Below the pieces are notes generated by a model, which did not search any database, was not told the origin of the DNA, and worked only from the letters and a program-made list of their open reading frames with translations. 64,000 nt of DNA from Microbotryum silenes-acaulis (taxonomy: Eukaryota; Basidiomycota; Microbotryomycetes; Microbotryales; Microbotryaceae): contig QPFY01000012.1 of NCBI GenBank assembly GCA_003665825.1, forward strand, positions 620,001 to 684,000, given 5' to 3'. The translations under genes were made by a program, and so were the position numbers. Positions 1 through 50,324 of this stretch are shown piece after piece. Numbering within the stretch: the first letter of the stretch is position 1; each line of letters starts with the position of its first letter.

Positions 1-3000
1 GGTCATTCCAATTGATCCCGAGTCGCCTCCCAACACTCTTCGTGCCTCTTTTTCTTTCCCGGACCGAGTCACCGACGCCACCTTTCGTGTGGGTGATTCA
101 AAGGTCCGGGTTGTAGTAATATACGCGCCTTCCTCCGACAAGCCAGAAAAAAAGCGCTTCCTCTCACATCTCAGCACAGCCCTTCGACAAGTCGTACGTG
201 ACGAACCCTCGCCGCCTGCGCTCCTAGTCGGGGGGGACTGGAATTGTGTTGAGTCCCAACCCCTCGATTCGGAGAACCAAAACGGAACGAATTATGGGGG
301 TCAGGAGATGCGCGACCTTGCCACGGCCAACAATCTTTTCGACGCCTATCGGCTCCACCATCCCAAAGGACGAGCCACGAGAATCGCTCAGCGCCCGGCA
401 CGTGCCGTCGCCTCGACCGCATCTATGTCTCGCCTGATTGGGTCGACCTCTTCCATGATCACAAAATTTGGGCCCCTGTCCTCAAATCGACGCACTCAAT
501 GGTTGTGGCACGGTTCCAAGTGCTGGGCGCAATCGACATCGGTCCGGGCAAATTCAAGCTGGGTTTGCACGTGATCGAGGGCGACGCGACCTGCGAGTAC
601 CTCACTTCCATTGTCCGCACCCTGTACAACGAAGCCCTCCTACAGACGCCCAACGATCCACCAGCAGCTTGGACATCCACCGAACACCGCCTGCTGCCCG
701 AGCTGCAGGCTCTGGCCCGGACGTTCGCTCGGTTCCGACGTGGAGGGTCGGAGCAAGAGAGGGGTCCCGCCTCGACCCATCTCTGGCGGGTCCCTCTTCC
801 ATCTTCATCCGCCTGCGCAAAGTGTGTTGGAATGGGTTGGTGCAACAGAAGACGATCTCGTCTGTGAGCACAGGGGGAGCCAACTGGGTTGAGGCGGTGA
901 TCGCGAGTGAGAGCGAGGCCAGGGATTCTTGGGCTCAGTATTCATTAGAAAGTGTCCAATTGGGTATTGCTTAGACGTTGGTAGGCTCCGCGCGCAGAAG
1001 CGGCTTAGTTTCTCCCCATCCGCTTCTCAATGTGCTTTCGCTGATCAGGGAGTCGATTTCCTCAACGTCTCTAAGAACACTACAAAGTGCGAGCATCCGA
1101 CCTGATCCCTTCGCTCACGGTCAACGATGTTGTTCATTCCGACCCTGATTCGATGCTTGGAGCGGCCAGCGACTACTTCGAGCGGGTCTATGAGGACCGC
1201 CCCATCAATGACGCGGCCCTGAAGGCGATCATCGACGGCCTCGCTTCAACTCGCCTCTCCCCCGCGGACTCACTCAAGCTCGAGGAAGCGTACCCGTTGG
1301 AGGAGATGACAAAGGCTCAAGAGGCGTGTAAGTCGAACTCTTCGCCAGGGCCTGACGGCCTCCCGGTTGAGTTCTATCGCGCTACGTGGCCGGCCACTGG
1401 CCCGATTCTTCGAGACGTCATCACCTCGATCCCCACCGAGGCCCGTCAGCCTGGACCTCTTCCCCGCAACACCGCCCACATCCATCTCATCCACAAACGC
1501 GGCGAGAGGGATCAGCTCTCGAACAAACGCCCCATATCGCTCATCAATGCGGACGAGCGCATCATCTCCCAAGCCCACAACCAGCGCCTCGCTCCCTTGC
1601 TCGAGTCCCTGATCGGCCCAACCCAACGTGGCTTTGTTCCGAACCGTTGGATCGGCACGAACATCGCTGAGGTCCAGTGTCTCATGGACCCTGGACTTCC
1701 GGGCTCACCACCCGTGTCCGGCATGCTAGCGGTGATGGACTTTGAAAAGGCTTACGATCGTCTCTCCCACACGTACCTTGATGCAGTCCTCTGCGCCGTT
1801 GGCCTCGGCCCCAAAGCCCGCCAATGGTACCGAGCGACCTACACCAACCAATCCGCCTCGATCTTCCTCAACGGTTGGCTCTCTGCCGCTTTCGACATCC
1901 TGTCGGGCGTTCGGCAAGGTGATCCTCTGGCTCCGTCTCTTCGTTCTGGCGATCGAGGGTTTTGCCTGTCAGATTCGATTGAGAGTCAAGGGCATCGAGA
2001 TTGCGGGCCTCCAAAACATTCGAGAACTCCTCTTTGCCGACGACGCTTGCTGCGCACTCCACAACCTCTCGGACCTCGACCACCTCAATCGGGCGATCGA
2101 GCTTTACGAACGGGCAAGTGCCAGCAAGCTCAGCAACGCCAAATCTTTCCTCTACCCCCTTGGAGCTTTTCGGGATCGGCCGATCGCCCCAGATCTCGGG
2201 ACCTGGCGTCTCAGCGATTCGCATTTTCGCTACCTGGGTATTCAGGTCGGGGTGGAGATCGCCGAGGATGCGGGCTGGGAAGATGTCAAGACCTCGACCA
2301 TCGCTCGGATACGCTCAATTCCGATGTACGATCTCCCATATGCAGCCAAGTGTTCAATCATCAACATCTACTGCTACACAAAGATCCTGTACTACAGCCG
2401 ATTCCTCCCCGCCCCCAAGAGCGTTGTCAAGGAGATCGAGGATGCGGCCATGCTCGCCATTCACGGTCGAGCGTCGGATGGTACTCAGCGACGTCCGAAG
2501 GTCTCCCGGTCGCGCCTCTGCACCCCTCTCGATCACGGCGGCTTCGGCTTGATTGATCTGCCTCGGCGTCTAGCGATCGATCACGCGAAGTGGGTCTTCC
2601 AGCTCCGGGCCCCGGACGGCTGCTTCACACGCCACCTCTTCGACATCCGCATTCGCCTCCAGGCACCGAACGAATCAACCCCTTTCACCTTGTCCAGACC
2701 GGCCCCCAACCAGCATCGTCGCCCTTGGATCTGGATCTGGTGGGCATACTTTTGCCATCCTCCCCCGAAGTGGGACCATGCGGTGAGAAAGACGAGAAAA
2801 CTACTTCCTGCACGTTGGGTCTGATACTTCGAAGCCTGGGCGTCGGTGACCACGCTCAATCCCCCGGAACTCTCCAAGAGCCAGAACCTCGAGCAATGGG
2901 CGACGCACGTACTCTACTTCCCAGCGGGCCACGGAATACAACTCGGTAAACCCGACGCTTTTTCGAGGGCCCGATGGCGAGGTGATGACGCCGTCTTCGT

Positions 3001-3551
3001 TCGTGAACGCGTCCAAACGCCACCAAGCCTTCATTTTCCCTCCTATCTTCCCCAAGGGACACCAGAAGGTATTCGATCTGCCTGAGCAACGTTGGAACGC
3101 TTGGTGGAAGGCTTTGCGCAAGGTTCGCCGGGTTCACTCGGACGCCGAGGATACCGGCCACCTTCTCTCCCTGGGGTCCCTCCATCTGGGCAGCCAAGTC
3201 GCCTCCCCAACCAGCCCTCACCCCAACAATCGATCTGCCTCCTGCGTGATGTGCCTCTCGGAAGCACCCGAGTGCCTGGCCCAGCTCGCGGTCGGCTGCC
3301 CATTTGCCCGGCGTCTCTGGTCTGCTCTGTCCCCGACCCCCCACCCAGTTTTTGTGGACTTTGTATGTCCGGTCGTGTCTCGCTCGGAACGTCGACTTGT
3401 CGAACTACGAGTCCTCTTCTTTCACTCGATCTGGAAGCTCTGTCGCCGTCGCCGATTCTCGTCGGATCTTTTGGAACCGATCGCCGAAACGGACTTCGAG
3501 GGGCTTCGAGCCTCTATTCAGGAGTCCAAGGGTCGCCTAGTGTCTCTGTAA
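1..3551 (+). pseudogene. LINE ORF2 (endonuclease / reverse transcriptase / zf-RVT), broken
   Basis: The first part reads as an AP-like endonuclease, with the catalytic GGDWN motif near 230-242 and a RLDRIYVSPDW stretch near 410-450. The RT follows from about 1090: SPGPDG, RPISL, QRGFVPNR, MDFEKAYD, SGVRQGDPL and, in another frame near 2035, LFADDA. A cysteine cluster CVMC...C...C near 3243-3305 is the zinc-binding region common at LINE ORF2 ends. Frame changes near 400 and 1935 are shared with the inverted copy, so they predate the duplication. The 31-bp deletion and the LTR insertion are unique to this copy. It cannot make a functional protein. Confidence 0.88.
825..1084 (+). repeat. Solo LTR (copia-type) nested in the LINE
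   Basis: Comparison with the uninterrupted copy near 33970 defines a 260-bp insertion. It begins TGTTGGA and ends CACTACA, so it has the TG...CA ends of an LTR, and it is flanked by the 5-bp direct repeat AAGTG (820-824 and 1085-1089). No internal domain is present, so LTR-LTR recombination probably removed it. It is not the same LTR as that of the 10.3-kb and 42.1-kb copia elements. Confidence 0.88.
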
Positions 3552-3732
3552 GCCACCAAAGGGGGTTTTAGTGGGTATGGTTGATCCTGGTTCAGGGTCA
3601 ATGAGTCCTACACTACTGGCTTCTGCCAGTATGCGTAACAGCATTCCCTCTGACTTTTCCGAAGATTTCTAGGTATTAATATAATTATGCTGTTAATGAA
3701 GTCTATCAAATAAATAAAAAATAGTATATCCC

Positions 3733-4280
3733 GTGTCGCTGTTGAAATGGATTCTCGAAGAAGTTGAAGTCGGAGAAACGGATTGTACTACGGGGCTTGC
3801 GCGTACCAGTGACGCTACAAACGTCGGATCCAGCTCGGGATCGGACTCCCACCAAAGTTCGAGTCAGGATCGAAGTCGCGTCGGAGTCGCGTATGATATC
3901 GCCTGCAACTTATCGTCGCACTTACGCCATATGAGTTTGTTCGTGACACTCAGCCTGAGCATTGGCTTAGTCCGTAGCTGAGCAGCTCATCTCTCCCCGG
4001 TATGCGCAACGCAATCTTCTGGCAGACCACTTACCGCGTCTAGAATTTGCTCTCGTCGATGCATGCCTATGCGCACAAGTGGTCCTGCCAGGTTGACTTT
4101 GATCCGCGCTTTCTACCCAATTTTGGTTTGACTGATGGCGAGAGAACCGAGCGCTTGTGGTCGCAGCTTCGAGGCATGATACCCATGAATCGATCATCGA
4201 GTGCCTCCCATCGGCTGGAGAACATCAATCATCGAGCGTCTGCTTATAACAAGCAGCATCTGGCCGATCTGTTGAGTTGA
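3733..4280 (+). pseudogene. KDZ (Kyakuja-Dileera-Zisupton) transposase fragment
   Basis: Two frames carry the pieces. VGVAYDIACNL near 3885-3912 and, from 4047, HAYAHKWSCQVDF...FGLTDGERTERLWSQLRG...HRLENINHRASAYN match the conserved core pattern of fungal KDZ transposases (YDIAC, HAYAH..C, GLSDGE..ERLWS). A frame change separates them and the remaining domains are absent. Only this transposase tail is kept, joined downstream to copia sequence. Copies lie at 8026-8500 and 30827-31301. The identification is from motif memory. Confidence 0.7.
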
Positions 4281-6046
4281 CACTTGAGGAGTACACTCTG
4301 CAGGCTACATGAGCGCGAGCGCGCGCGGGGTTTCTCTTAGCTTCCTTCTGATTCGAGCGTTCTAACGTATTGAACCACCTCGAATCAGACGCCGAGATTC
4401 AAGAGGTTATAAGCCCAACGACTTCGCACAGCTGCTGCCACGTCGCAACGGTTCACCCGAACGCTCCACCATGACTGGCGAACAGTCAACCATCGACAAG
4501 TCCGTCGACGCAGACCCTCCAACACACTCGCAAACTTCGCGTTTCCCGGCATTTGCGATTTTGAAGAACAACAAGATCGGCGTATGGCTCGATCACGTTC
4601 GCTTCACCGTCGACAGGCGTCAGTGGCAGCTCTCCTTTCCCAAGCAGTACCCATCCGCCAAATGCAAGGACGACAATGAACTCGATCGAGCTCATGATGC
4701 GGTGCACAGGGCAATGCATCAAACCTGTTCAGAAAGTGTGGCGCATCTCCTGGTCAGCTGCTACGACCTGACGCCGGAGCAGACGGTGGAATACCTTCGA
4801 AAGCATCTGGGTCGGTCTTCCCTTCGCGGCGTTATCCCGCAAATTGGAAAGTTATTCTCGGTCGGACCGCCACCAGCACAGGAAGACGATTATCTTCCTT
4901 GGGCCGGATCCATCACTCGCCTCACAACTGACTTACGGGCTCACAAGTTGACGTTCGATTAAGTGGTTGCTTGCCACCTCATTGCGATTGTGGGGGCTCG
5001 ACGACCGTCGTATCTGGATCAGTTCGACTCCAAAGACGTCGATGCGATACCAACTGTCAACACAGTGATCGCAGCAGGTCGAGCTCCAGCAAACTTGAGT
5101 CAAGAGACTGGGAACGCTGCGACGGCGTTGTTGGCCACAACTGGTGCCCAACCGAAGCCACCCGGCCCCTGCTGGAACTGCGGTGAAGACACCCACTTCA
5201 ACAAAAACTGTTCCAAGCCGAAGAAGAAGAAGTTTCCACGATGCAAGACGACCAAAGGCGAGGAACCGATGGCAAATTTGGCGCTCCCTTCGGTTGAAGA
5301 CATTCTGGGGACCGATCCCGTTGGCGCGTTTTTCACGCAATTACCAAAAGGACACTCTCGAGAAATGATCCTCTACGACACGGCAGCGACTCATCACGTC
5401 ATCAATAATCCTGCCGCGTTTGCCGACCTGAAGGCGACAGCTCCGTCTTTGTTAAAGGGCATCAATGGTGACGGAAAGACCATTATGGGAGTAGGCACGG
5501 CCTGCGTCGAAGACAAGCACGGCAAGAAGTACAACTTGGTCAACAGCATCTTCGTCCCTAGCGCCCCCGCCAATCTCTTCGCCGGGCATCGAGCCGATCG
5601 TGATAGTCGCAAGATCACCATTCAAAACGGGCGATTCACGGTGGCGGGAAATGACGACATCCTACTCACGGGACAGAAGCTCAATTTGGGGTTGTACCGG
5701 CTGGACCTCAAGTTGGTTCAAGCTCGGAGTTCACCCCATGAATGTGCGTCAGCCACAGCTCTGACAGCAGTGCCTCTCCACATCTGGCACGGACGTTTCG
5801 CTCATCTACACTGCCGTTCCCTTCACCAGCTGTCCAAGTCTGACGCTGTGATAGGTTTGAACATGAAGTCTTGCAGTGACTTGAAATGTGAATCGTGTCT
5901 GGCCGGCAACGCTACGCACAAGCCGTTCCCAAACTCCGAATCGCTAGCCGAAAAACCCCTTGATCTCGTCCACATCGATCTCTTGTCCTTCGACGGCGAG
6001 CTGTCACTCGACACGGGCTTGTCGCGACAACTCACGATCCCCAGCA
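3806..6046 (+). repeat. Left arm of a 2.24-kb palindrome
   Basis: The arm is repeated in reverse complement at 6260-8500, with a 213-bp spacer at 6047-6259. Positions of the two arms sum to 12306. The left boundary lies at CCAGTGACGC and the inner boundary at CCCCAGCA. It carries a KDZ transposase fragment (3806-4280), about 190 bp of unassigned sequence and a copia gag/integrase fragment (from 4471). Confidence 0.95.
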
Positions 6047-6259
6047 TGCCCGAGCAAAACGGTGTCGCCGAAAGGGCCAACCGCTCGATTTCGGAAGCAG
6101 CTCGAACGATGCTGTATGAATCCGGTCTGCCCACGGTGTTTTGGGCCGAAGCCGTGGCTACATACGTGTATGTGAAGAATCGTTCCCCACACTCTGCTCT
6201 TGGTGGCAAGGTGCCATTTCGGGAATGGACCGGGAAACCTGCGCACATTCATCACTTGG
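4471..6259 (+). pseudogene. Ty1/copia gag-protease-integrase fragment
   Basis: A gag frame starts at 4471 and stops at TAA 4960-4962. The same frame continues to a CCHC zinc knuckle (CWNCGEDTHFNKNC, near 5173-5214), a protease-like DTAATHHVINN (near 5378), a GAG-pre-integrase HHCC module (IWHGRFAHLH ... CESCLAG) and the beginning of the integrase. At 6046/6047 it jumps to the integrase C-terminal part (EQNGVAERANRS), so the catalytic core is deleted. The frame then runs into the inverted arm. RT and RNase H are absent. The 190 bp before 4471 show no gene; no LTR was recognised there. Confidence 0.87.
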
Positions 6260-7835
6260 TGCTGGGGATCGTGAGTTGTCGCGACAAGCCCGTGTCGAGT
6301 GACAGCTCGCCGTCGAAGGACAAGAGATCGATGTGGACGAGATCAAGGGGTTTTTCGGCTAGCGATTCGGAGTTTGGGAACGGCTTGTGCGTAGCGTTGC
6401 CGGCCAGACACGATTCACATTTCAAGTCACTGCAAGACTTCATGTTCAAACCTATCACAGCGTCAGACTTGGACAGCTGGTGAAGGGAACGGCAGTGTAG
6501 ATGAGCGAAACGTCCGTGCCAGATGTGGAGAGGCACTGCTGTCAGAGCTGTGGCTGACGCACATTCATGGGGTGAACTCCGAGCTTGAACCAACTTGAGG
6601 TCCAGCCGGTACAACCCCAAATTGAGCTTCTGTCCCGTGAGTAGGATGTCGTCATTTCCCGCCACCGTGAATCGCCCGTTTTGAATGGTGATCTTGCGAC
6701 TATCACGATCGGCTCGATGCCCGGCGAAGAGATTGGCGGGGGCGCTAGGGACGAAGATGCTGTTGACCAAGTTGTACTTCTTGCCGTGCTTGTCTTCGAC
6801 GCAGGCCGTGCCTACTCCCATAATGGTCTTTCCGTCACCATTGATGCCCTTTAACAAAGACGGAGCTGTCGCCTTCAGGTCGGCAAACGCGGCAGGATTA
6901 TTGATGACGTGATGAGTCGCTGCCGTGTCGTAGAGGATCATTTCTCGAGAGTGTCCTTTTGGTAATTGCGTGAAAAACGCGCCAACGGGATCGGTCCCCA
7001 GAATGTCTTCAACCGAAGGGAGCGCCAAATTTGCCATCGGTTCCTCGCCTTTGGTCGTCTTGCATCGTGGAAACTTCTTCTTCTTCGGCTTGGAACAGTT
7101 TTTGTTGAAGTGGGTGTCTTCACCGCAGTTCCAGCAGGGGCCGGGTGGCTTCGGTTGGGCACCAGTTGTGGCCAACAACGCCGTCGCAGCGTTCCCAGTC
7201 TCTTGACTCAAGTTTGCTGGAGCTCGACCTGCTGCGATCACTGTGTTGACAGTTGGTATCGCATCGACGTCTTTGGAGTCGAACTGATCCAGATACGACG
7301 GTCGTCGAGCCCCCACAATCGCAATGAGGTGGCAAGCAACCACTTAATCGAACGTCAACTTGTGAGCCCGTAAGTCAGTTGTGAGGCGAGTGATGGATCC
7401 GGCCCAAGGAAGATAATCGTCTTCCTGTGCTGGTGGCGGTCCGACCGAGAATAACTTTCCAATTTGCGGGATAACGCCGCGAAGGGAAGACCGACCCAGA
7501 TGCTTTCGAAGGTATTCCACCGTCTGCTCCGGCGTCAGGTCGTAGCAGCTGACCAGGAGATGCGCCACACTTTCTGAACAGGTTTGATGCATTGCCCTGT
7601 GCACCGCATCATGAGCTCGATCGAGTTCATTGTCGTCCTTGCATTTGGCGGATGGGTACTGCTTGGGAAAGGAGAGCTGCCACTGACGCCTGTCGACGGT
7701 GAAGCGAACGTGATCGAGCCATACGCCGATCTTGTTGTTCTTCAAAATCGCAAATGCCGGGAAACGCGAAGTTTGCGAGTGTGTTGGAGGGTCTGCGTCG
7801 ACGGACTTGTCGATGGTTGACTGTTCGCCAGTCAT
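6260..7835 (-). pseudogene. Copia gag-protease-integrase fragment, inverted copy
   Basis: Mirror of 4471-6046. Gag starts at 7835 and carries the same TAA stop (7344-7346). The zinc knuckle and protease-like motifs are preserved. The absence of RT and RNase H is the same. Confidence 0.87.
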
Positions 7836-8025
7836 GGTGGAGCGTTCGGGTGAACCGTTGCGACGTGGCAGCAGCTGTGCGAAGTCGTTGGGCTTATAAC
7901 CTCTTGAATCTCGGCGTCTGATTCGAGGTGGTTCAATACGTTAGAACGCTCGAATCAGAAGGAAGCTAAGAGAAACCCCGCGCGCGCTCGCGCTCATGTA
8001 GCCTGCAGAGTGTACTCCTCAAGTG

Positions 8026-8500
8026 TCAACTCAACAGATCGGCCAGATGCTGCTTGTTATAAGCAGACGCTCGATGATTGATGTTCTCCAGCCGATGGGA
8101 GGCACTCGATGATCGATTCATGGGTATCATGCCTCGAAGCTGCGACCACAAGCGCTCGGTTCTCTCGCCATCAGTCAAACCAAAATTGGGTAGAAAGCGC
8201 GGATCAAAGTCAACCTGGCAGGACCACTTGTGCGCATAGGCATGCATCGACGAGAGCAAATTCTAGACGCGGTAAGTGGTCTGCCAGAAGATTGCGTTGC
8301 GCATACCGGGGAGAGATGAGCTGCTCAGCTACGGACTAAGCCAATGCTCAGGCTGAGTGTCACGAACAAACTCATATGGCGTAAGTGCGACGATAAGTTG
8401 CAGGCGATATCATACGCGACTCCGACGCGACTTCGATCCTGACTCGAACTTTGGTGGGAGTCCGATCCCGAGCTGGATCCGACGTTTGTAGCGTCACTGG
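8026..8500 (-). pseudogene. KDZ transposase fragment, inverted copy
   Basis: Mirror of 3806-4280, with the HAYAHKW...GLTDGERTERLW block on the minus strand. It is truncated at the palindrome boundary. Confidence 0.7.
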
Positions 8501-8823: not shown

Positions 8824-15292
<6,469 letters not shown>

Positions 15293-27746: not shown

Positions 27747-28847
27747 AGTTGACGTTCGATGAAGTGGTTGCTTGCCACCTCATTGCGATTGTGGGGGCTC
27801 GACGACCGTCGTATCTGGATCAGTTCGACTCCAAAGACGTCGATGCGATACCAACTGTCGACACAGTGATCGCAGCAGGTCGAGCTCCAGCAAACTTGAG
27901 TCAAGAGACTGGGAACGCTGCGACGGCGTTGTTGGCCACAACTGGTGCCCAACCGAAGCCACCCGGCCCCTGCTGGAACTGCGGTGAAGACACCCACTTC
28001 AACAAAAACTGTTCCAAGCCGAAGAAGAAGAAGTTTCCACGATGCAAGACGACCAAAGGCGAGGAACCGATGGCAAATTTGGCGCTCCCTTCGGTTGAAG
28101 ACATTCTGGGGACCGATCCCGTTGGCGCGTTTTTCACGCAATTACCAAAAGGACACTCTCGAGAAATGATCCTCTACGACACGGCAGCGACTCATCACGT
28201 CATCAATAATCCTGCCGCGTTTGCCGACCTGAAGGCGACAGCTCCGTCTTTGTTAAAGGGCATCAATGGTGACGGAAAGACCATTATGGGAGTAGGCACG
28301 GCCTGCGTCGAAGACAAGCACGGCAAGAAGTACAACTTGGTCAACAGCATCTTCGTCCCTAGCGCCCCCGCCAATCTCTTCGCCGGGCATCGAGCCGATC
28401 GTGATAGTCGCAAGATCACCATTCAAAACGGGCGATTCACGGTGGCGGGAAATGACGACATCCTACTCACGGGACAGAAGCTCAATTTGGGGTTGTACCG
28501 GCTGGACCTCAAGTTGGTTCAAGCTCGGAGTTCACCCCATGAATGTGCGTCAGCCACAGCTCTGACAGCAGTGCCTCTCCACATCTGGCACGGACGTTTC
28601 GCTCATCTACACTGCCGTTCCCTTCACCAGCTGTCCAAGTCTGACGCTGTGATAGGTTTGAACATGAAGTCTTGCAGTGACTTGAAATGTGAATCGTGTC
28701 TGGCCGGCAACGCTACGCACAAGCCGTTCCCAAACTCCGAATCGCTAGCCGAAAAACCCCTTGATCTCGTCCACATCGATCTCTTGTCCTTCGACGGCGA
28801 GCTGTCACTCGACACGGGCTTGTCGCGACAACTCACGATCCCCAGCA
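27747..28847 (+). pseudogene. Copia gag-protease-integrase fragment, truncated palindrome arm
   Basis: Starts at AGTTGACGTTCGAT inside gag. It differs from the other three copies at two early positions: GAA instead of the TAA stop (27762-27764 region), so the frame reads LTFDEVVACH, and GAC instead of AAC (TVDTV for TVNTV). The zinc knuckle and protease-like motifs are present. It pairs with 29061-30161 around a 213-bp spacer (28848-29060). Confidence 0.87.
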
Positions 28848-29060
28848 CCAAGTGATGAATGTGCGCAGGTTTCCCGGTCCATTCCCGAAATGGCACCTTG
28901 CCACCAAGAGCAGAGTGTGGGGAACGATTCTTCACATACACGTATGTAGCCACGGCTTCGGCCCAAAACACCGTGGGCAGACCGGATTCATACAGCATCG
29001 TTCGAGCTGCTTCCGAAATCGAGCGGTTGGCCCTTTCGGCGACACCGTTTTGCTCGGGCA

Positions 29061-30636
29061 TGCTGGGGATCGTGAGTTGTCGCGACAAGCCCGTGTCGAG
29101 TGACAGCTCGCCGTCGAAGGACAAGAGATCGATGTGGACGAGATCAAGGGGTTTTTCGGCTAGCGATTCGGAGTTTGGGAACGGCTTGTGCGTAGCGTTG
29201 CCGGCCAGACACGATTCACATTTCAAGTCACTGCAAGACTTCATGTTCAAACCTATCACAGCGTCAGACTTGGACAGCTGGTGAAGGGAACGGCAGTGTA
29301 GATGAGCGAAACGTCCGTGCCAGATGTGGAGAGGCACTGCTGTCAGAGCTGTGGCTGACGCACATTCATGGGGTGAACTCCGAGCTTGAACCAACTTGAG
29401 GTCCAGCCGGTACAACCCCAAATTGAGCTTCTGTCCCGTGAGTAGGATGTCGTCATTTCCCGCCACCGTGAATCGCCCGTTTTGAATGGTGATCTTGCGA
29501 CTATCACGATCGGCTCGATGCCCGGCGAAGAGATTGGCGGGGGCGCTAGGGACGAAGATGCTGTTGACCAAGTTGTACTTCTTGCCGTGCTTGTCTTCGA
29601 CGCAGGCCGTGCCTACTCCCATAATGGTCTTTCCGTCACCATTGATGCCCTTTAACAAAGACGGAGCTGTCGCCTTCAGGTCGGCAAACGCGGCAGGATT
29701 ATTGATGACGTGATGAGTCGCTGCCGTGTCGTAGAGGATCATTTCTCGAGAGTGTCCTTTTGGTAATTGCGTGAAAAACGCGCCAACGGGATCGGTCCCC
29801 AGAATGTCTTCAACCGAAGGGAGCGCCAAATTTGCCATCGGTTCCTCGCCTTTGGTCGTCTTGCATCGTGGAAACTTCTTCTTCTTCGGCTTGGAACAGT
29901 TTTTGTTGAAGTGGGTGTCTTCACCGCAGTTCCAGCAGGGGCCGGGTGGCTTCGGTTGGGCACCAGTTGTGGCCAACAACGCCGTCGCAGCGTTCCCAGT
30001 CTCTTGACTCAAGTTTGCTGGAGCTCGACCTGCTGCGATCACTGTGTTGACAGTTGGTATCGCATCGACGTCTTTGGAGTCGAACTGATCCAGATACGAC
30101 GGTCGTCGAGCCCCCACAATCGCAATGAGGTGGCAAGCAACCACTTAATCGAACGTCAACTTGTGAGCCCGTAAGTCAGTTGTGAGGCGAGTGATGGATC
30201 CGGCCCAAGGAAGATAATCGTCTTCCTGTGCTGGTGGCGGTCCGACCGAGAATAACTTTCCAATTTGCGGGATAACGCCGCGAAGGGAAGACCGACCCAG
30301 ATGCTTTCGAAGGTATTCCACCGTCTGCTCCGGCGTCAGGTCGTAGCAGCTGACCAGGAGATGCGCCACACTTTCTGAACAGGTTTGATGCATTGCCCTG
30401 TGCACCGCATCATGAGCTCGATCGAGTTCATTGTCGTCCTTGCATTTGGCGGATGGGTACTGCTTGGGAAAGGAGAGCTGCCACTGACGCCTGTCGACGG
30501 TGAAGCGAACGTGATCGAGCCATACGCCGATCTTGTTGTTCTTCAAAATCGCAAATGCCGGGAAACGCGAAGTTTGCGAGTGTGTTGGAGGGTCTGCGTC
30601 GACGGACTTGTCGATGGTTGACTGTTCGCCAGTCAT
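29061..30636 (-). pseudogene. Copia gag-protease-integrase fragment, full palindrome arm of the right copy
   Basis: Counterpart of 4471-6046. It carries the TAA stop at 30145-30147. The integrase C-terminal spacer (29060-28848 on the minus strand) follows it as in the left block. Confidence 0.87.
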
Positions 30637-30826
30637 GGTGGAGCGTTCGGGTGAACCGTTGCGACGTGGCAGCAGCTGTGCGAAGTCGTTGGGCTTATAA
30701 CCTCTTGAATCTCGGCGTCTGATTCGAGGTGGTTCAATACGTTAGAACGCTCGAATCAGAAGGAAGCTAAGAGAAACCCCGCGCGCGCTCGCGCTCATGT
30801 AGCCTGCAGAGTGTACTCCTCAAGTG

Positions 30827-31301
30827 TCAACTCAACAGATCGGCCAGATGCTGCTTGTTATAAGCAGACGCTCGATGATTGATGTTCTCCAGCCGATGGG
30901 AGGCACTCGATGATCGATTCATGGGTATCATGCCTCGAAGCTGCGACCACAAGCGCTCGGTTCTCTCGCCATCAGTCAAACCAAAATTGGGTAGAAAGCG
31001 CGGATCAAAGTCAACCTGGCAGGACCACTTGTGCGCATAGGCATGCATCGACGAGAGCAAATTCTAGACGCGGTAAGTGGTCTGCCAGAAGATTGCGTTG
31101 CGCATACCGGGGAGAGATGAGCTGCTCAGCTACGGACTAAGCCAATGCTCAGGCTGAGTGTCACGAACAAACTCATATGGCGTAAGTGCGACGATAAGTT
31201 GCAGGCGATATCATACGCGACTCCGACGCGACTTCGATCCTGACTCGAACTTTGGTGGGAGTCCGATCCCGAGCTGGATCCGACGTTTGTAGCGTCACTG
31301 G
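30827..31301 (-). pseudogene. KDZ transposase fragment, third copy
   Basis: Counterpart of 3806-4280, with the same HAYAHKW...ERLWSQLRG block. About 73 bp more of KDZ-like sequence (to 31374) continue up to the LINE tail. Confidence 0.7.
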
Positions 31302-31555
31302 TACGCGCAAGCCCCGTAGTACAATCCGTTTCTCCGACTTCAACTTCTTCGAGAATCCATTTCAACAGCGACACGGGATATACTATTTTTTATTTATTTG
31401 ATAGACTTCATTAACAGCATAATTATATTAATACCTAGAAATCTTCGGAAAAGTCAGAGGGAATGCTGTTACGCACACTGGCAGAAGCCAGTAGTGTAGG
31501 ACTCATTGACCCTGAACCAGGATCAACCATACCCACTAAAACCCCCTTTGGTGGC

Positions 31556-34500
31556 TTACAGAGACACTAGGCGACCCTTGGACTCCTGAATAGAGGCTCG
31601 AAGCCCCTCGAAGTCCGTTTCGGCGATCGGTTCCAAAAGATCCGACGAGAATCGGCGACGGCGACAGAGCTTCCAGATCGAGTGAAAGAAGAGGACTCGT
31701 AGTTCGACAAGTCGACGTTCCGAGCGAGACACGACCGGACATACAAAGTCCACAAAAACTGGGTGGGGGGTCGGGGACAGAGCAGACCAGAGACGCCGGG
31801 CAAATGGGCAGCCGACCGCGAGCTGGGCCAGGCACTCGGGTGCTTCCGAGAGGCACATCACGCAGGAGGCAGATCGATTGTTGGGGTGAGGGCTGGTTGG
31901 GGAGGCGACTTGGCTGCCCAGATGGAGGGACCCCAGGGAGAGAAGGTGGCCGGTATCCTCGGCGTCCGAGTGAACCCGGCGAACCTTGCGCAAAGCCTTC
32001 CACCAAGCGTTCCAACGTTGCTCAGGCAGATCGAATACCTTCTGGTGTCCCTTGGGGAAGATAGGAGGGAAAATGAAGGCTTGGTGGCGTTTGGACGCGT
32101 TCACGAACGAAGACGGCGTCATCACCTCGCCATCGGGCCCTCGAAAAAGCGTCGGGTTTACCGAGTTGTATTCCGTGGCCCGCTGGGAAGTAGAGTACGT
32201 GCGTCGCCCATTGCTCGAGGTTCTGGCTCTTGGAGAGTTCCGGGGGATTGAGCGTGGTCACCGACGCCCAGGCTTCGAAGTATCAGACCCAACGTGCAGG
32301 AAGTAGTTTTCTCGTCTTTCTCACCGCATGGTCCCACTTCGGGGGAGGATGGCAAAAGTATGCCCACCAGATCCAGATCCAAGGGCGACGATGCTGGTTG
32401 GGGGCCGGTCTGGACAAGGTGAAAGGGGTTGATTCGTTCGGTGCCTGGAGGCGAATGCGGATGTCGAAGAGGTGGCGTGTGAAGCAGCCGTCCGGGGCCC
32501 GGAGCTGGAAGACCCACTTCGCGTGATCGAGAGGGGTGCAGAGGCGCGACCGGGAGACCTTCGGACGTCGCTGAGTACCATCCGACGCTCGACCGTGAAT
32601 GGCGAGCATGGCCGCATCCTCGATCTCCTTGACAACGCTCTTGGGGGCGGGGAGGAATCGGCTGTAGTACAGGATCTTTGTGTAGCAGTAGATGTTGATG
32701 ATTGAACACTTGGCTGCATATGGGAGATCGTACATCGGAATTGAGCGTATCCGAGCGATGGTCGAGGTCTTGACATCTTCCCAGCCCGCATCCTCGGCGA
32801 TCTCCACCCCGACCTGAATACCCAGGTAGCGAAAATGCGAATCGCTGAGACGCCAGGTCCCGAGATCTGGGGCGATCGGCCGATCCCGAAAAGCTCCAAG
32901 GGGGTAGAGGAAAGATTTGGCGTTGCTGAGCTTGCTGGCACTTGCCCGTTCGTAAAGCTCGATCGCCCGATTGAGGTGGTCGAGGTCCGAGAGGTTGTGG
33001 AGTGCGCAGCAAGCGTCGTCGGCAAAGAGGAGTTCTCGAATGTTTTGGAGGCCCGCAATCTCGATGCCCTTGACTCTCAATCGAATCTGACAGGCAAAAC
33101 CCTCGATCGCCAGAACGAAGAGACGGAGCCAGAGGATCACCTTGCCGAACGCCCGACAGGATGTCGAAAGCGGCAGAGAGCCAACCGTTGAGGAAGATCG
33201 AGGCGGATTGGTTGGTGTAGGTCGCTCGGTACCATTGGCGGGCTTTGGGGCCGAGGCCAACGGCGCAGAGGACTGCATCAAGGTACGTGTGGGAGAGACG
33301 ATCGTAAGCCTTTTCAAAGTCCATCACCGCTAGCATGCCGGACACGGGTGGTGAGCCCGGAAGTCCAGGGTCCATGAGACACTGGACCTCAGCGATGTTC
33401 GTGCCGATCCAACGGTTCGGAACAAAGCCACGTTGGGTTGGGCCGATCAGGGACTCGAGCAAGGGAGCGAGGCGCTGGTTGTGGGCTTGGGAGATGATGC
33501 GCTCGTCCGCATTGATGAGCGATATGGGGCGTTTGTTCGAGAGCTGATCCCTCTCGCCGCGTTTGTGGATGAGATGGATGTGGGCGGTGTTGCGGGGAAG
33601 AGGTCCAGGCTGACGGGCCTCGGTGGGGATCGAGGTGATGACGTCTCGAAGAATCGGGCCAGTGGCCGGCCACGTAGCGCGATAGAACTCAACCGGGAGG
33701 CCGTCAGGCCCTGGCGAAGAGTTCGACTTACACGCCTCTTGAGCCTTTGTCATCTCCTCCAACGGGTACGCTTCCTCGAGCTTGAGTGAGTCCGCGGGGG
33801 AGAGGCGAGTTGAAGCGAGGCCGTCGATGATCGCCTTCAGGGCCGCGTCATTGATGGGGCGGTCCTCATAGACCCGCTCGAAGTAGTCGCTGGCCGCTCC
33901 AAGCATCGAATCAGGGTCGGAATGAACAACATCGTTGACCGTGAGCGAAGGGATCAGGTCGGATGCTCGCACTTTGCGCAGGCGGATGAAGATGGAAGAG
34001 GGACCCGCCAGAGATGGGTCGAGGCGGGACCGCAGCGCCGCGCCGTAGCGCGAGTGGTCAGCCCTCTCTTGCTCCGACCCTCCACGTCGGAACCGAGCGA
34101 ACGTCCGGGCCAGAGCCTGCAGCTCGGGCAGCAGGCGGTGTTCGGTGGACGTCCAAGCTGCTGGTGGATCGTTGGGCGTCTGTAGGAGGGCTTCGTTGTA
34201 CAGGGTGCGGACAATGGAAGTGAGGTACTCGCAGGTCGCGTCGCCCTCGATCACGTGCAAACCCAGCTTGAATTTGCCCGGACCGATGTCGATTGCGCCC
34301 AGCACTTGGAACCGTGCCACAACCATTGAGTGCGTCGATTTGAGGACAGGGGCCCAAATTTTGTGATCATGGAAGAGGTCGACCCAATCAGGCGAGACAT
34401 AGATGCGGTCAAGGCGACGGCACGTGCCGGGCGCTGAGCGATTCTCGTGGCTCGTCCTTTGGGATGGTGGAGCCGATAGGCGTCGAAAAGATTGTTGGCC

Positions 34501-35078
34501 GTGGCAAGGTCGCGCATCTCCTGACCCCCATAATTCGTTCCGTTTTGGTTCTCCGAATCGAGGGGTTGGGACTCAACACAATTCCAGTCCCCCCCGACTA
34601 GGAGCGCAGGCGGCGAGGGTTCGTCACGTACGACTTGTCGAAGGGCTGTGCTGAGATGTGAGAGGAAGCGCTTTTTTTCTGGCTTGTCGGAGGAAGGCGC
34701 GTATATTACTACAACCCGGACCTTTGAATCACCCACACGAAAGGTGGCGTCGGTGACTCGGTCCGGGAAAGAAAAAGAGGCACGAAGAGTGTTGGGAGGC
34801 GACTCGGGATCAATTGGAATGACCACGGAGTCGCTCTTCCAGAGTATGGCAGTGTTGTTGAAAGGAGTGAAGAGAGCAGAGAGCTTTAAGTCTTGGCACT
34901 CCTGAGTCCACTGGGCCACCCTTTCGGGGGAAGGTCGGCCAGTTTCGCTCAGGAGAAAGACGTCGGCGTTATGGGAGCAGAGATTGGAGAAAAGAGAGGC
35001 ACGCTTACGGTCTTCATTGATTGACTGCACGTTGGCAGCAACAAAAGACACGTTGGGGATCTTAGTTGTGCTCATCAT
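31556..35078 (-). pseudogene. LINE ORF2, endonuclease-RT, frameshifted
   Basis: The endonuclease starts at 35078 (MMSTTKIPNVSFVAANVQSIN, LLSETGRPS, VVVIYAPSSDKPEKKRF, GGDWN). A one-base frame change near 34420 precedes RLDRIYVSPDW. The RT runs in the frame of 34326 as SPGPDG ... MDFEKAYD ... SGVRQGDPLAPSL, then changes frame for LFADDA. The zinc-binding C-terminus is at 32125-31556. Unlike copy 1, the endonuclease-to-RT join near 34000 is uninterrupted here. Confidence 0.88.
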
Positions 35079-37224: not shown

Positions 37225-40200
37225 TTACTGCTGGTCCTGCGATGCTTGCACAGCGGCGGGAGCCGACCGGAAGAAGGGGTGCCGGCCCCATAGGATCTCA
37301 TGCTCGAACGCATTCAGGCAGTTCCCCGCTCCCATGATGTCCCGGTCGGCAGGCATGTGGACGCAGGTCCCACCGCCTAGGGCAACGCGGAAACAGGTGG
37401 ATCCGTTCAATTTTTGGCTAAGACCGACCCTGCGGAGGCCAATCACAACACGGCGCGAGTGTCAGTGACCCGAGCTGAGGGCCGAACGCGGTAGAAAAGA
37501 CTCGGCAAGTGATCAAGAGGTCTCAATCATGGCAGACTCACCAGTTCCGCGTTCCATCCGTGTCCCTACAGTCCGAATGCCAGCAGAGCTTGGACGTCAA
37601 ATACTCGCTGACGGTACAGAAGTACATGCTCTCCATTCCAAGCGCCTGCAGGCAGCGAAAGATGATCTTGATGCAACTGTGGGCGTAGGAGACGCCCGAC
37701 GGATTGGGACCAGGGCTTGTGAACCCATTGCCGACTACGAGGAAGGCGGGTCGCGAGTCCTTTGAGAGTAGGTGATTGTAGGTGGTTGTCTCGGGATGGG
37801 TCGGTGGAGATGGAACGAGGTGGTTGGGTCGACGAGCCGCGGCTGCCAGGTGTCGTATAGCGTAGGTGTCAGCATAGTCCACCCAGCTCGAGCACCCGAG
37901 CCGATTTTCTTGGGTTGCAAGGAGAAACTTTACCAGCGCAAACTCACCCATGCACTCGAGACCAAACACTTTGGCCATTTGTTCGGCTTGTTGGTACATA
38001 ACCGTGAGAGTCGCCTCTCGTTGCGTACTTGAAACCGAAATCGCGTCGTGCGTGTGTCGAAGGGGAAACCCAAGTTTTGTCGCAAGCGGGGACCACTCGA
38101 GCTTGTTGGCACGCAAGGCCTCGTTGATACGATGGGTCTTGTTCGCGCGTTGACGGGCACCTTTGCGATTGCCTTCCGCTGCGATAGCTCCAAGCCCCTC
38201 TTTGCCGAACCGGAACGTCTCCAAGGCCGCCGTCTCGTCGTGCGTGAAAACACGAGCGACGGCAGTGACCGGCCGAGCGTGACCGAGATCGATCGAAATG
38301 ACGATCGAATCCTCGAAAGCACGCCAGAGATCACGGAAGAGGTCGCCACGTTGTTCAAACACCGCAATGAGGTTCTCCGTGACTACGACGTGCTGCGGAA
38401 TCAAACACATCCCGATCGACGACAGGCAAAGGCGAATTCTTCAGCCAAAATGCTACCCTGCCGCCGACTTCCGTCAGACGCAAGGAACATGGGAGCAAAC
38501 TCGACTCACCTGGGTGCCAAATTTCTTGTTCGAGTGCTCTTGGAGCCTTCCCAATACCGCTCGACGTGCCTCGGGGTTGTGTATCGATGGGATGCAGATG
38601 CGACTGTCGATGATGGGGACGTCTCGGAATCGCTTCCAGGACACGTACTCGACTCGCACGGCTTCGCGCTCAATAAGAGCTTGGCGCTCGGGATCGAGAG
38701 GGATGGGAGCGGCCGCCACCGCGCGTTCTCGGAGCTTGCGTTCCAACTCGTCAATTCGGCTCGGCTTCTCGGCGGATCCCGGTCGAGCATACGATAAGCG
38801 GAACACGTGATTGATGCCGTCGACATAGTGCTCCAAGTCGTGCTTGACCACTCGCGGGCCCTTCTTGCCTTTTGTTTGGAAGCGGAGCCACAGCCGGGCT
38901 TTGGCCACCGTCCGGTCGAGCGCGGAGCCGATCGAGACGTCGGGATTATTGTACCAGGACTTGTTACGCTCTGTTGATGCCACGCTCGACACATTCAAGA
39001 CTCGTAGACGAACTCGGTGTCCGTTCGTTGTGAACGACCCCGCCGGTATTTCGTCCTTGTCGAGAATCCTGTCTGTGTCGAAGAGGATGTCGACGAGGCG
39101 AGGACCAAAGGCAGCGAACGCGTCCGACTCGAGAAGCCTCTCCTCGGATAGCTCAGGTGGGACGGTCGGGGTCGACGGGTCCGAGCCAGCCAGGGGTCGG
39201 CCGAAACAGAGGTGCTGCAGCGCCTTGACGCCGGCCACTGCGTCACGAGCCCACTCCGGTCTGACGTGCATCGTCTTCTCGTCCTTAGATGTGGTGAAGA
39301 TCAGGTTGAACCCTCTTCCTAGCAACGCTCGAAGGACGGGGAAGTGAGTCGGACTTGCGGCGTTACCCGCGGGCTCCGATACGTCATTGACGACAGACGC
39401 AGCAACAAGCTTGTGCAACCAGTCGAGCTGCGTTCGGACGAGCGAGACGGGGTACGTGAGGATCGCGCCGAGATACCCCGGCGAACAGTTCACAAAAGGT
39501 CGTTTGCCCTCGGTCTGTCCGAACATCAAACAGATTCCCCAACGCAGTCAAGGTCAGCACTCGATCGCTACACCGGCTGGGGTGACAGAGTGCCAGCTGT
39601 CGAGTGTCGGACTCACGGGTACGATGCCCCTGCCATGTCCGGATTCGAGGAGAAGATGGTGGTAGACGGGCAGGAGCGCGATCGGGTTTTTGAGCTTGCC
39701 GCCGGGTCCAAAATCGGAGAGCTTGGCGCCGACCAGACGAGTGACGGAAGCTTGATCTCGTCCAAATCCCCATCGCATCCGCTGGTCTCGACTTCCGCAA
39801 GCCTCTTGCAAGCACGCTCGCATGACCGCGCGGAGGTGTTCGTGGTCGGGATCAGACTGGTCTTTGGCGATCCCGGCCACCAACGCCTCGAGGTCCGCTC
39901 GATGGGAGCGCCAGGGAAATGGGACCTCCGAGAGCGCGGTGACGAGACAGTCGAGCAGTCGCTTGCGCCCCTTGGGCTGACGGAAGTCGTCGTCCGGGTC
40001 GAGCGGCGAAAGCGCCGATTCGATGTCACGAGACTCGAACATGTGCCGGGCGTAGGTGGCGAGAACGTAATCTCCTCGGTCTTTCCAACTAAGGAGATCT
40101 GTTGCATAGCGCTGGGCCACGTTTTGGTAGTATGCCGAGTCGAGCTTGTAGCGCGGGAGGAAGACTCCTTTCTCTCGAAGTTCCTTGACGGCTGAGGCCA

Positions 40201-41870
40201 GCAACCCTGAAGCCTACATCACCGCCGCAAAATAAGTGATTCCGAGTCGACGAGTCAGCTCCTCCATCTTGAAGTTGGCGGATCTCTCTCTCTGAACTCG
40301 AAGACTAGTCGACTCACCGCGTTGTACAGGAGAGGACCATCATCATTGGCCGCTCCCTCGAACTGTTCGACGTGCCGACCATACTCCGCCGGGGTCATCG
40401 TTGCGAGGTCGACTGAGACGGTCGCCGTGAGTTGCCCCGGTTTCTTCGAGACACGAGATAACGTGAGGGAATCACGGGGCTGGAGCGCATCCTCGTCACC
40501 AGAGCCGAGTCGCTCGACGCGATCTCGTGCCAGTCCCTCTGGGTCCATCCGTTGAGGTAGTCGAGCAGGACTGCGTTCACGACTTTGAACTCGAGCTCTC
40601 GCGCGAGCTTTTGTAGTCGCATAAGCGAGGATAACGTGTTCTTCCATCGCTGGTTGTCTGTTTCGGGGTGGTCGGGTGATAGGGGCGGAAGAATCTCGCG
40701 CACGCTCGCCCGCAACCCTCGGCGTCGAACAGGAGCATGATACTCCTTGTTCGCCGGCGTGCCTTGACCTTGTCGACTCCCTCCCTCGCCCTCGTCCTCG
40801 TCTTCGCCGCCGTCCTGAAAGTCGTCGTCATGAGGAGCAGTGATGGGATCTGGCTTCGGCTCCCCCTCGTCGACCTCATTCTCCCCGAACTCGTCCTCCC
40901 CGTACTCGTCTTCCCCGCACTCATCCTCTCCGAACTCGTCCTCCCCGAACTCGTCCTCTTGCCCATCATCATCATCATCATCATCATCATCGCCATCAAC
41001 ATCGTCCTCCTCCTCGTCCAAGGTGCCGCAGCCCATGCCCGAAGCCCGATCCTCCGAGCCGAGATCGTGATCGTCGACATCGAGATCACTCGCACTCGGC
41101 GAATCCAACACAGGAGGTGTGGGTCGCTGCAGTCTGCGCTCGCCTTCCGGCTTGGACTTGCTTCGATTGAGCAACGGACCGGTCTCCATCCTCGTGGTGT
41201 CGATGTACCTCCATGCATGGTATCCCATGATGGATCGGTACAGAGGACTCCGTACTCGAGCGACTTGGGCGCCCAGCTTCTCCCGGCAGTGCCCCACCTT
41301 CGTGACCACCTTGAGGTACTCCTTGCGAAGGTCAGGGCGCGCGCCCAAAGCCTGCCATGCTTGCGAACGCAGCGTAGTCATCTTCTTGCGGGGCTGCTTG
41401 AGGAAGAGCTTGGCCGCTGCGAGGGAGGGTGGCTGCGCGGAGGGAAGTGGAGGTGCAGCGAGAGTGGCAGGTCCGGCGATGACACCCGAAGCGGTGACGA
41501 CGGTCGTCAAGGCGGCGAGAGTGGGTGCTAGGGGTATCGGGGGTGGAGAAAGCAGCCAGCTGGCGGGTGGTGTTGCGGAGGTGGTGGAGAACAAGGGTCG
41601 AGTCCTCTGCGGGGGTGTAACCGGAGCTTGAGGTGGAAACGTCGTCGCTCTGGGAAGGGGTGCACCCCAAGGGGTCCTGAAGCCACGGAGGGGGATGTTG
41701 CGTGTGGTGGGAGATGCCTTCTGTGCCTTGAGTCGGTCGAATCGATCGCCGACATCGTTCGTCACAAGCGTGTAGATCTTGCCCATCTCGTTCCGAGCAC
41801 GTTCCAGCCCCTCAACGCGCTTGGTTCTTGACGATCTGTTCTTTGTTGAAGGTGTTAGTAGACCTTGCAC
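37225..41870 (-). CDS. Fanzor-type (eukaryotic TnpB-like) RNA-guided nuclease
   Basis: Best model: complement(join(37225..37429,37542..38392,38510..39514,39617..40213,40318..40479,40500..41870)), about 1396 aa if translation starts at 41870. Fanzor proteins are eukaryotic homologues of TnpB that cut DNA guided by an RNA encoded at the gene's 3' end. The C-terminal signature is readable: RuvC-I VISIDLGHARPVTAVARV (Asp codon 38288-38290), then GNGFTSPG, EYLTSKLC with a four-cysteine finger (C codons at 37583, 37568, 37393, 37363) and ADRDIMGAGN (RD motif Asp at 37339-37341). This fits the family pattern D-x(n)-[TS][TS]xxC4-RD. The second cysteine pair and RD lie on the last exon. The N-terminal part is Pro-rich, then has nine Asp and FGEDE repeats. 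The join at 40500/40479 is unresolved: 20 nt must be skipped, or a frameshift exists. An acceptor at about 41840 is possible, so 41870 may not be the real start. The RuvC-II glutamate was not located. Confidence 0.72.
40868..41010 (-). repeat. Minisatellite coding for FGEDE units and an Asp run
   Basis: 15-bp units around GAACTCGTCCTCCCC are followed by a CATCATCAT run (about 40967-40992). On the minus strand they encode nine consecutive Asp and repeated E-F-G-E-D in the Fanzor N-terminal half. Confidence 0.85.
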
Positions 41871-41880
41871 TGATATCAGG

Positions 41881-41964
41881 GGCCGGATAGCTTAGTTGGT
41901 CAAAGCTTTTCCAATGAATGGAAGCGACCCAGGTTCGACTCCTGGTCCGACTCCTGGTCCAGCC
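41881..41964 (+). tRNA. tRNA-like gene, probably degenerate
   Basis: A perfect A box (TAGCTTAGTTGG, 41888-41899) and B box (GGTTCGACTCC, 41932-41942) are present, with TTTT at 41975-41978 as a Pol III stop. Acceptor, D, anticodon and T arms all fold; acceptor GGCCGGA pairs with TCCAGCC with one mismatch. Two faults: TCCGACTCCTGG is tandemly duplicated in the T-arm/acceptor region, and position 33 is A in place of the universal U (loop AATGAAT, nominal anticodon TGA without a Ser-type variable arm). The isotype is not assignable. It lies antisense to the 5' region of the Fanzor gene. Confidence 0.55.
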
Positions 41965-41989
41965 GTTCTTCTTCTTTTGTTGATCATTT

Positions 41990-42127
41990 CGGGATCATCG
42001 TTGATTCCAACATTCTTGAGGCAGTCTCCGAAGGCCTCGTGGATGGTCGTGATGTCCGCTTGCCAGAATTGGAACGAGAGGCAGAATCCGTACTTCTCGA
42101 AGGCTCGTCGAAGTCCGATGCCCGGTA
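41990..42127 (-). pseudogene. Probable upstream Fanzor coding exon, downstream fragment of a split exon
   Basis: Minus-strand sequence reads PGIGLRRAFEKYGFCLSFQFWQADITTIHEAFGDC... and joins in frame to the fragment at 47082-47443 if the copia element is removed at a GGTACC. The donor that would lead to the main Fanzor frame is uncertain (a GTCGGA or GTCGAA near 41950). A CTAAC branch site and AG acceptor lie at 41860-41840. Membership in the Fanzor gene is inferred. Confidence 0.45.

Positions 42128-50324
<8,197 letters not shown>

What the first reader, a model, noticed from the sequence alone, without database searches (positions are those of the whole stretch)
37225..41870. Fanzor-type RNA-guided nuclease gene in a fungal transposon island
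The C-terminus shows the family signature: RuvC-I Asp in SIDLGHARPV, EYLTSKLC, a four-cysteine finger and ADRDIMGAGN. The finger and the RD motif are split by an intron, so a frame-by-frame reading misses the last exon. The protein is large (about 1400 aa) with an acidic, repetitive N-terminal half, and it lies between a LINE and a copia element. Fanzor proteins are known eukaryotic TnpB relatives; this member may be undescribed.
Basis: partly seen in the sequence, partly recalled or inferred. Interest (0 to 1): 0.92.

Follow-up and report, generated by a model that had tools for sequence, protein, structure and literature searches.

The report
Broken Fanzor-like gene with flap nuclease
This stretch of what is most likely an anther-smut fungus genome holds the damaged remains of a repeated-element gene that, in a close relative, joins a flap-nuclease-like domain to a distant cousin of the RNA-guided DNA-cutting protein Fanzor.

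Summary
The motifs and the split last exon are real. A minus-strand gene (37225-40488) reads open through five exons and four GT-AG introns, with the same joints as an annotated Microbotryum saponariae protein (P0001, 1718 aa; 92% identical over the RuvC region). TnpB/Fanzor kinship is supported but remote: full superfamily motif, shifted RuvC-II glutamate (E-x6-C), a genome scan with the TnpB zinc-ribbon model whose five sub-threshold hits are all relatives of this gene, and a profile match (38 against at most 19 in 60 shuffles). Against: the window has DLG, not Fanzor's DPG (two own-genome relatives and one M. intermedium protein have DPG), an odd finger, no curated cut-off passed, no usable fold. 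FEN-like and Fanzor-like parts lie in tandem at 8 of 15 loci. I read it as a new variant: a two-nuclease system seen so far only in Microbotryum. RNA guidance, cleavage and element ends are unshown.

The parts
42012..42128 (-). remnant of the FEN/XPG-like domain (P0001 residues 296-334, LPGIG...); residues 1-295 not found in the window
   Evidence: tblastn, 72% identity
41840..42019 (+). tRNA-Ser-like dispersed repeat (SINE by inference) lying between remnant and linker
   Evidence: tRNA-Ser call 41881-41954; at least 25 further genomic places at 91-99%
40489..41880 (-). acidic/proline-rich linker and start of the Fanzor-like half (P0001 about 337-791), open frame
40318..40488 (-). exon, in another frame than the linker (frame break near 40488)
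40214..40317 (-). intron (GTGAGT...TAG)
   Evidence: same joint in P0001
39617..40213 (-). exon
39515..39616 (-). intron
38510..39514 (-). exon
38393..38509 (-). intron
37542..38392 (-). exon with RuvC-I (SIDLG), the Gly at the presumed canonical Glu place (VVGNG), the shifted Glu (SEYLTSKLC) and the first two finger cysteines
37430..37541 (-). intron splitting the finger
37225..37429 (-). last exon with two finger cysteines, ADRDIMGAGN (RuvC-III) and the stop codon
42137..47081 (-). copia element whose LTR end abuts the gene remnant

Best explanation
The window holds a decaying copy of a Microbotryum repeated-element gene. The ancestral protein had an N-terminal FEN/XPG-like structure-specific nuclease domain, a long acidic linker, and a C-terminal RuvC nuclease half that is a highly divergent member of the TnpB/Fanzor superfamily. 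Inferred mechanism: a guide RNA made by the element steers the RuvC half to DNA, which it cuts, as in Fanzor; the FEN-like half trims the flaps or branched ends that result, which helps the element copy itself or stay in place. Shown here: gene anatomy, remote homology of both halves, conserved acidic positions, repeated tandem pairing, purifying selection on the RuvC half of relatives, and the damage in this copy. Inferred only: RNA guidance, cleavage, and a role in mobility.
For: Same splice joints in P0001. Superfamily motif with D-to-TS spacing 230 and RD six residues after the last Cys; E-x6-C in 8 of 8 aligned sequences. Genome scan with PF07282: 5 of 5 places, all sub-threshold, lie in copies of the related L006-L009 family. 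A relative's only Pfam match at E<=1 is PF07282, E 0.005. hhalign to TnpB 38.3, P 5e-4, 60 shuffles at most 19.0. FEN half: seven acidic positions invariant in 3 aligned sequences; only Rad2 in the PDB, E 0.0035 for one relative and 0.026 for the profile; hhalign to FEN 37.5, P 1.6e-4, 20 shuffles at most 24.6. Tandem pairing at 8 of 15 loci. dN/dS 0.08 to 0.27 in five comparisons of the RuvC half.
Against: Window RuvC-I is DLG, finger is C-x4-C / C-x9-C. No model over its cut-off; the XPG_I scan finds other places only; P0001 itself matches no FEN in Pfam or the PDB. FEN N-half dN/dS 0.70 at dS 0.06 between two copies, so no clear constraint there. In the C2 and C18 copies the FEN-like ORF ends with a stop before the Fanzor-like part. 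Structure model unusable, pLDDT 31.6. No folding signal in 3 stretches of 3' flank. 16 of 24 FEN-like loci are unpaired.
Confidence: 0.72

Rival explanations
1. It is a divergent Fanzor in a fungal DNA transposon, and the FEN-like part is a passenger or separate gene of the element without joint function; P0001 as one protein is a gene-caller's fusion.
For: In the C2 and C18 copies the FEN-like ORF has its own stop; P0001 has one doubtful intron; 7 of 15 Fanzor-like loci have no FEN-like place found upstream.
Against: In the window the FEN remnant and the linker are separated only by the repeat, and P0001 runs through the place without a gap; pairing recurs in about three subfamilies.
Confidence: 0.3
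2. The C-terminal half is a RuvC/RNase H-like nuclease with a zinc finger that converged on the motif and is not descended from TnpB/Fanzor, and is not RNA-guided.
For: DLG instead of DPG, odd finger, no significant library match, profile alignment limited to 59 columns; no guide RNA evidence.
Against: DPG plus E-x6-C in two own-genome relatives, and DPG in P0002; the five PF07282 places in the genome all fall in this family.
Confidence: 0.12
3. The truncated window copy is still a working gene: a FEN-less Fanzor-like protein of about 900 aa starts at an internal Met in the exon at 40488-40318.
For: Open frame through all downstream exons with good splice sites; RuvC region 92% identical to P0001.
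Against: Upstream damage; no expression data; near-neutral divergence from the only close fragment, dN/dS 0.64 over 80 codons, which may be due to that fragment.
Confidence: 0.15

Closest known systems
Fanzor1 (for example SPu-1-1p / SpuFz1 of Spizellomyces punctatus)
   Same: Superfamily motif and its spacing, shifted glutamate six residues before the first finger Cys, Gly at the presumed canonical glutamate place, repeated elements of a fungal genome
   Different: DLG in the window, C-x4-C finger, an FEN/XPG-like domain ahead of it, no sequence match to solved Fanzors, no guide RNA or element ends shown
Bacterial TnpB (ISDra2)
   Same: Colinear finger and RuvC-III stretch in profile comparison
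   Different: TnpB has its glutamate about 50 residues upstream (PMC10711439, passage), is about 400 aa, and has no FEN domain
FEN1 / Rad2 (XPG) nucleases
   Same: Order of the acidic positions and the GxDYxxGxxGxG stretch in P0001 and own-genome relatives
   Different: Encoded by repeated elements, fused to or beside a Fanzor-like nuclease; missed by the XPG_I model; lost from the window copy

Membership tests
TnpB/Fanzor superfamily | D-X(125,275)-[TS][TS]XX-[C4 finger]-X(5,50)-RD (PMC3627910) | tested here: met
   D to TS 230, TS..C, four Cys, RD six residues after the last Cys in window and P0001; the own-genome copy C2_949k has only three Cys
TnpB/Fanzor superfamily | Match to the zinc-ribbon model PF07282 over its cut-off | tested here: not met
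   No match in the window exons; relatives reach E 0.005 to 0.09, below cut-off
TnpB/Fanzor superfamily | Profile similarity to TnpB above controls | tested here: met
   38.3, P 5e-4, over 59 columns; 60 shuffles at most 19.0, reversed 16.4
Fanzor | DPG in RuvC-I (PMC10711439) | tested here: not met
   Window and P0001 DLG; of 6 other own-genome sequences 2 DPG, 2 DLG, 1 DTG, 1 DSG; P0002 DPG
Fanzor | Shifted RuvC-II glutamate, E-x6-C (PMC10711439) | tested here: met
   8 of 8 aligned sequences
Fanzor | CxxC...CxxC finger | tested here: not met
   Window C-x4-C and C-x9-C; other subfamilies C-x4-C and C-x3-C
Fanzor | RuvC fold with the three catalytic residues together | tested here: inconclusive
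   Model of one exon with a two-row alignment, pLDDT 31.6
Fanzor | Guide RNA from the 3' end of the element | tested here: inconclusive
   Folding of 3 stretches of 3' flank not different from shuffles; no RNA data
Fanzor element (transposon) | Defined element ends, TIR or TSD | tested here: inconclusive
   Common right end in three copies, no inverted counterpart in the DNA held; left ends outside it
FEN/XPG nucleases | Acidic active-site positions | tested here: met
   For P0001 and two own-genome sequences: D8, D55, E138, D140, D168, D170, D252 invariant; the window copy has lost them. Roles are recalled; six of seven lie in the columns hhalign aligns to FEN
FEN/XPG nucleases | Match to the XPG_I model | tested here: not met
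   7 places in the genome, none of them a FEN-like place

The most novel reading that the evidence does not exclude
A eukaryotic element family, with no transposase recognised in the parts examined, that moves or persists by a self-contained two-nuclease machine: an RNA-guided Fanzor-type cutter coupled, and in one branch fused, to an FEN/XPG-like flap nuclease that processes the cut or the R-loop.
Probability: 0.2. Interest if true: 0.87.

Novelty: new variant of a known kind. Interest (0 to 1): 0.62.

Why it matters
Fanzors are the eukaryotic relatives of TnpB and Cas12, and what they do for their elements is unclear. A family that pairs such a nuclease with a flap nuclease, with the acidic positions of both kept in relatives, points to a concrete and testable role in processing DNA ends while the element spreads or persists. 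It would also be a natural two-nuclease architecture, and it shows that Fanzor-like genes can lie below the thresholds of current models.

Tried and rejected
Considered and set aside: a chance motif (1 of 50,000 shuffles); a misread last exon (P0001 has the same joint). Led nowhere: viral contigs (152 pattern matches, none confirmed); three searches of 5.8 billion proteins (none of 7997 scored at E<=0.001; P0001 alone of 2706 at E<=10; P0002 alone of 8000 at E<=10). These searches need shared 5-residue words and limit candidate length, and could not have returned proteins as long as P0001, so kin elsewhere may be missed. PDB by sequence (nothing significant). NCBIfam (none). PHROGs (two sub-threshold matches to a relative, a 'transposase' family at E 0.15 and one of unknown function at 0.25; none for the window exon). 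Rfam (the tRNA only; none). RNA folding of 3 stretches of 3' flank. A transposase among 7 further plus-strand ORFs of the C18 copy (three weak unrelated matches in one ORF; minus-strand ORFs not scanned). Structure prediction (too poor, so no fold search was run).

Literature: searches (Fanzor with fungi, basidiomycete, FEN1, flap endonuclease, anther-smut, Microbotryum, fused domains; TnpB with XPG). Listings only, and capped (15 of 126 and 15 of 127 seen). Passages read: PMC10711439, PMC10432273, PMC3627910 (first of seven parts, and passages), PMC10502011, PMC11071296, PMC11423790. None described an FEN/XPG domain joined to a Fanzor. One passage of PMC11071296 uses the words 'candidate Fanzor flap endonuclease homologs' for viral genes; I could not tell whether that is only a name. 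Subscription papers, and supplements, were not seen.
Full report
What is there. On the minus strand the exons 40488-40318, 40213-39617, 39514-38510, 38392-37542 and 37429-37225, joined by four introns that begin GTGAGT and end AG, read open to a stop codon. The annotated protein P0001 (Microbotryum saponariae, 1718 aa) is 92% identical over the RuvC region and has the same four joints. P0001 lacks 18 residues that the window keeps in frame and that align with residues of own-genome relatives, so that further intron in P0001 is probably a gene-calling error. The genome (29.85 Mb in 88 contigs) is therefore most likely a Microbotryum, a basidiomycete (taxonomy); the identification is my inference from that one protein.

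The window copy is broken. P0001 residues 296-334 lie at 42128-42012; residues 1-295 were not found in the window. The remnant abuts the LTR end of a copia element at 42137. A tRNA-Ser-like repeat with at least 25 further copies lies at about 41840-42019; 'SINE' is my reading of it. Near 40488 the frame changes, while P0001 and the scrambled fragment L018 stay in one frame there. From that point the frame is open to the stop codon.

The RuvC half. Window and P0001 carry the superfamily motif of Bao and Jurka (PMC3627910): D to TS 230 residues, TS..C, four cysteines, RD six residues after the last Cys. Yoon and colleagues (PMC10711439, passages) define Fanzors by DPG in RuvC-I and a glutamate six residues before the first finger Cys. 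The glutamate rule is met by 8 of 8 aligned sequences. DPG is not met by the window or P0001 (DLG); of the 6 other own-genome sequences two have DPG, two DLG, one DTG and one DSG; the M. intermedium protein P0002 has DPG. The finger is C-x4-C with C-x9-C in the window and C-x4-C with C-x3-C in the other subfamilies, with one Cys lost in the C2_949k copy. A strand about 40 residues before the shifted glutamate carries Gly (VVGNG; FIGDG, FIGAG, FIGVG and FVGEG in relatives), which I take for the place of the canonical glutamate; Bao and Jurka report a highly conserved Gly and Glu pair in Fanzor1 (passage).

Tests of kinship. Pfam gave only weak matches below cut-off for the window exons, and the PDB nothing significant by sequence. 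A scan of the whole genome with the TnpB zinc-ribbon model PF07282 (E<=10) gave five places, none over the cut-off, E 0.07 to 0.09, and all five lie in copies of the related family of L006-L009 and L051. One relative's only Pfam match at E<=1 was the same model, E 0.005. hhalign of the family against an alignment of at most 18 TnpB proteins gave 38.3, P 5e-4, over 59 columns of finger and RuvC-III, RuvC-I not included. The highest of 60 column shuffles was 19.0; reversed 16.4; against FEN 14.3.

The FEN-like half. P0001 begins with a domain that has the acidic positions of FEN/XPG nucleases. In a three-row alignment with two own-genome sequences, each 33% identical to P0001 and close to each other, D8, D55, E138, D140, D168, D170 and D252 are invariant; their roles are recalled, and all but D8 lie in columns that hhalign aligns to FEN. 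An own-genome FEN-like ORF of 564 aa matched only yeast Rad2 in the PDB at E<=1, E 0.0035, over 190 residues; the three-row profile matched only Rad2, E 0.026, weakly residue by residue. hhalign against three FEN sequences gave 37.5, P 1.6e-4; 20 shuffles at most 24.6, reversed 16.9, against TnpB 13.4. Against this: P0001 itself matched no FEN in Pfam or the PDB; among the three rows Pfam gave only PARP_regulatory (E 0.018) and Pox_G5 (E 0.31), both below cut-off; and the XPG_I scan of the genome gave seven places, none of them a FEN-like place.

Pairing. Of 15 distinct Fanzor-like loci (17 rows), 8 have a FEN-like place (28 rows, 24 distinct, E<=1) on the same strand within 10 kb upstream, where chance gives about 0.004 per locus; 16 of 24 FEN-like loci are unpaired. 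One of the 8 is the window with its 40-residue remnant. Three of the FEN-like places rest on weak matches (E 0.02 to 0.04), but the own-genome FEN-like ORF confirms them. The copies fall into few subfamilies, so I count about three independent cases. In the C2 and C18 copies the FEN-like ORF ends with its own stop before the Fanzor-like part; the single-protein form rests on P0001 and on the window, where only the repeat stands between FEN remnant and linker.

Selection. Between subfamilies the RuvC half gives dN/dS 0.08, 0.15, 0.15, 0.16 and 0.27; a sixth comparison is saturated in dS. The FEN N-half between the C2 and C18 copies gives 0.70 at dS 0.06, so it shows no clear constraint. The window against the L018 fragment gives 0.64 over 80 codons (all).

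Not shown. The AlphaFold2 model of the main RuvC exon, from a two-row alignment, has pLDDT 31.6. Folding of 3' flanks gave no signal. Three copies share a right end without an inverted counterpart in the DNA held; left ends lie outside it. Three protein searches found kin only in Microbotryum and a viral scan none, within the limits told under Tried and rejected.

Verdict. The gene is a relic of a family, seen so far only in Microbotryum, that sets an FEN/XPG-like nuclease beside a divergent Fanzor-like nuclease and in one branch fuses them. I do not file the window copy as a canonical Fanzor, because DPG and the finger spacing fail; I do place it in the TnpB/Fanzor superfamily. The working model, RNA-guided cutting followed by flap trimming, is inference from the known biochemistry of each half.

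Noticed in passing
window 1-7360 and 27747-34824: Near-identical inverted repeat (99.7-100% in pieces), with a further inner inverted pair of 2241 bases at 100% (3806-6046 and 6260-8500).
   Followed up: no
window 10271-15215 and 42137-47081: Two copia copies in opposite orientation, 99.7% identical over 4945 bases.
   Followed up: partly
window 41840-42019: tRNA-Ser-like repeat of about 170-180 bases with at least 25 further places at 91-99% identity, perhaps a SINE.
   Followed up: partly
L052/L047 (C2:945000-958800) against L053/L008 (C18): Mosaic elements: upstream region and FEN N-half nearly alike (about 87-93% DNA, dS 0.06) while the Fanzor-like half is about 72-78% (dS above 1).
   Followed up: partly
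L046 (C10:397500-407400): Looks like an internal deletion derivative: the upstream region joins directly to the Fanzor-like half, the FEN-like part being absent.
   Followed up: partly
L008:5645-5839: The last 195 bases of the C18 copy recur at eight other genomic places, 89-97% identical, one of them shorter.
   Followed up: no
L023:4510-6392 (C6): A 97.7% palindrome whose two arms both carry a fragment 34-36% identical to the window gene.
   Followed up: no
L018:4788-6305 (C12:1003500-1013400): Scrambled, partly inverted fragment of a close relative of the window gene, 73-92% identical in pieces.
   Followed up: partly
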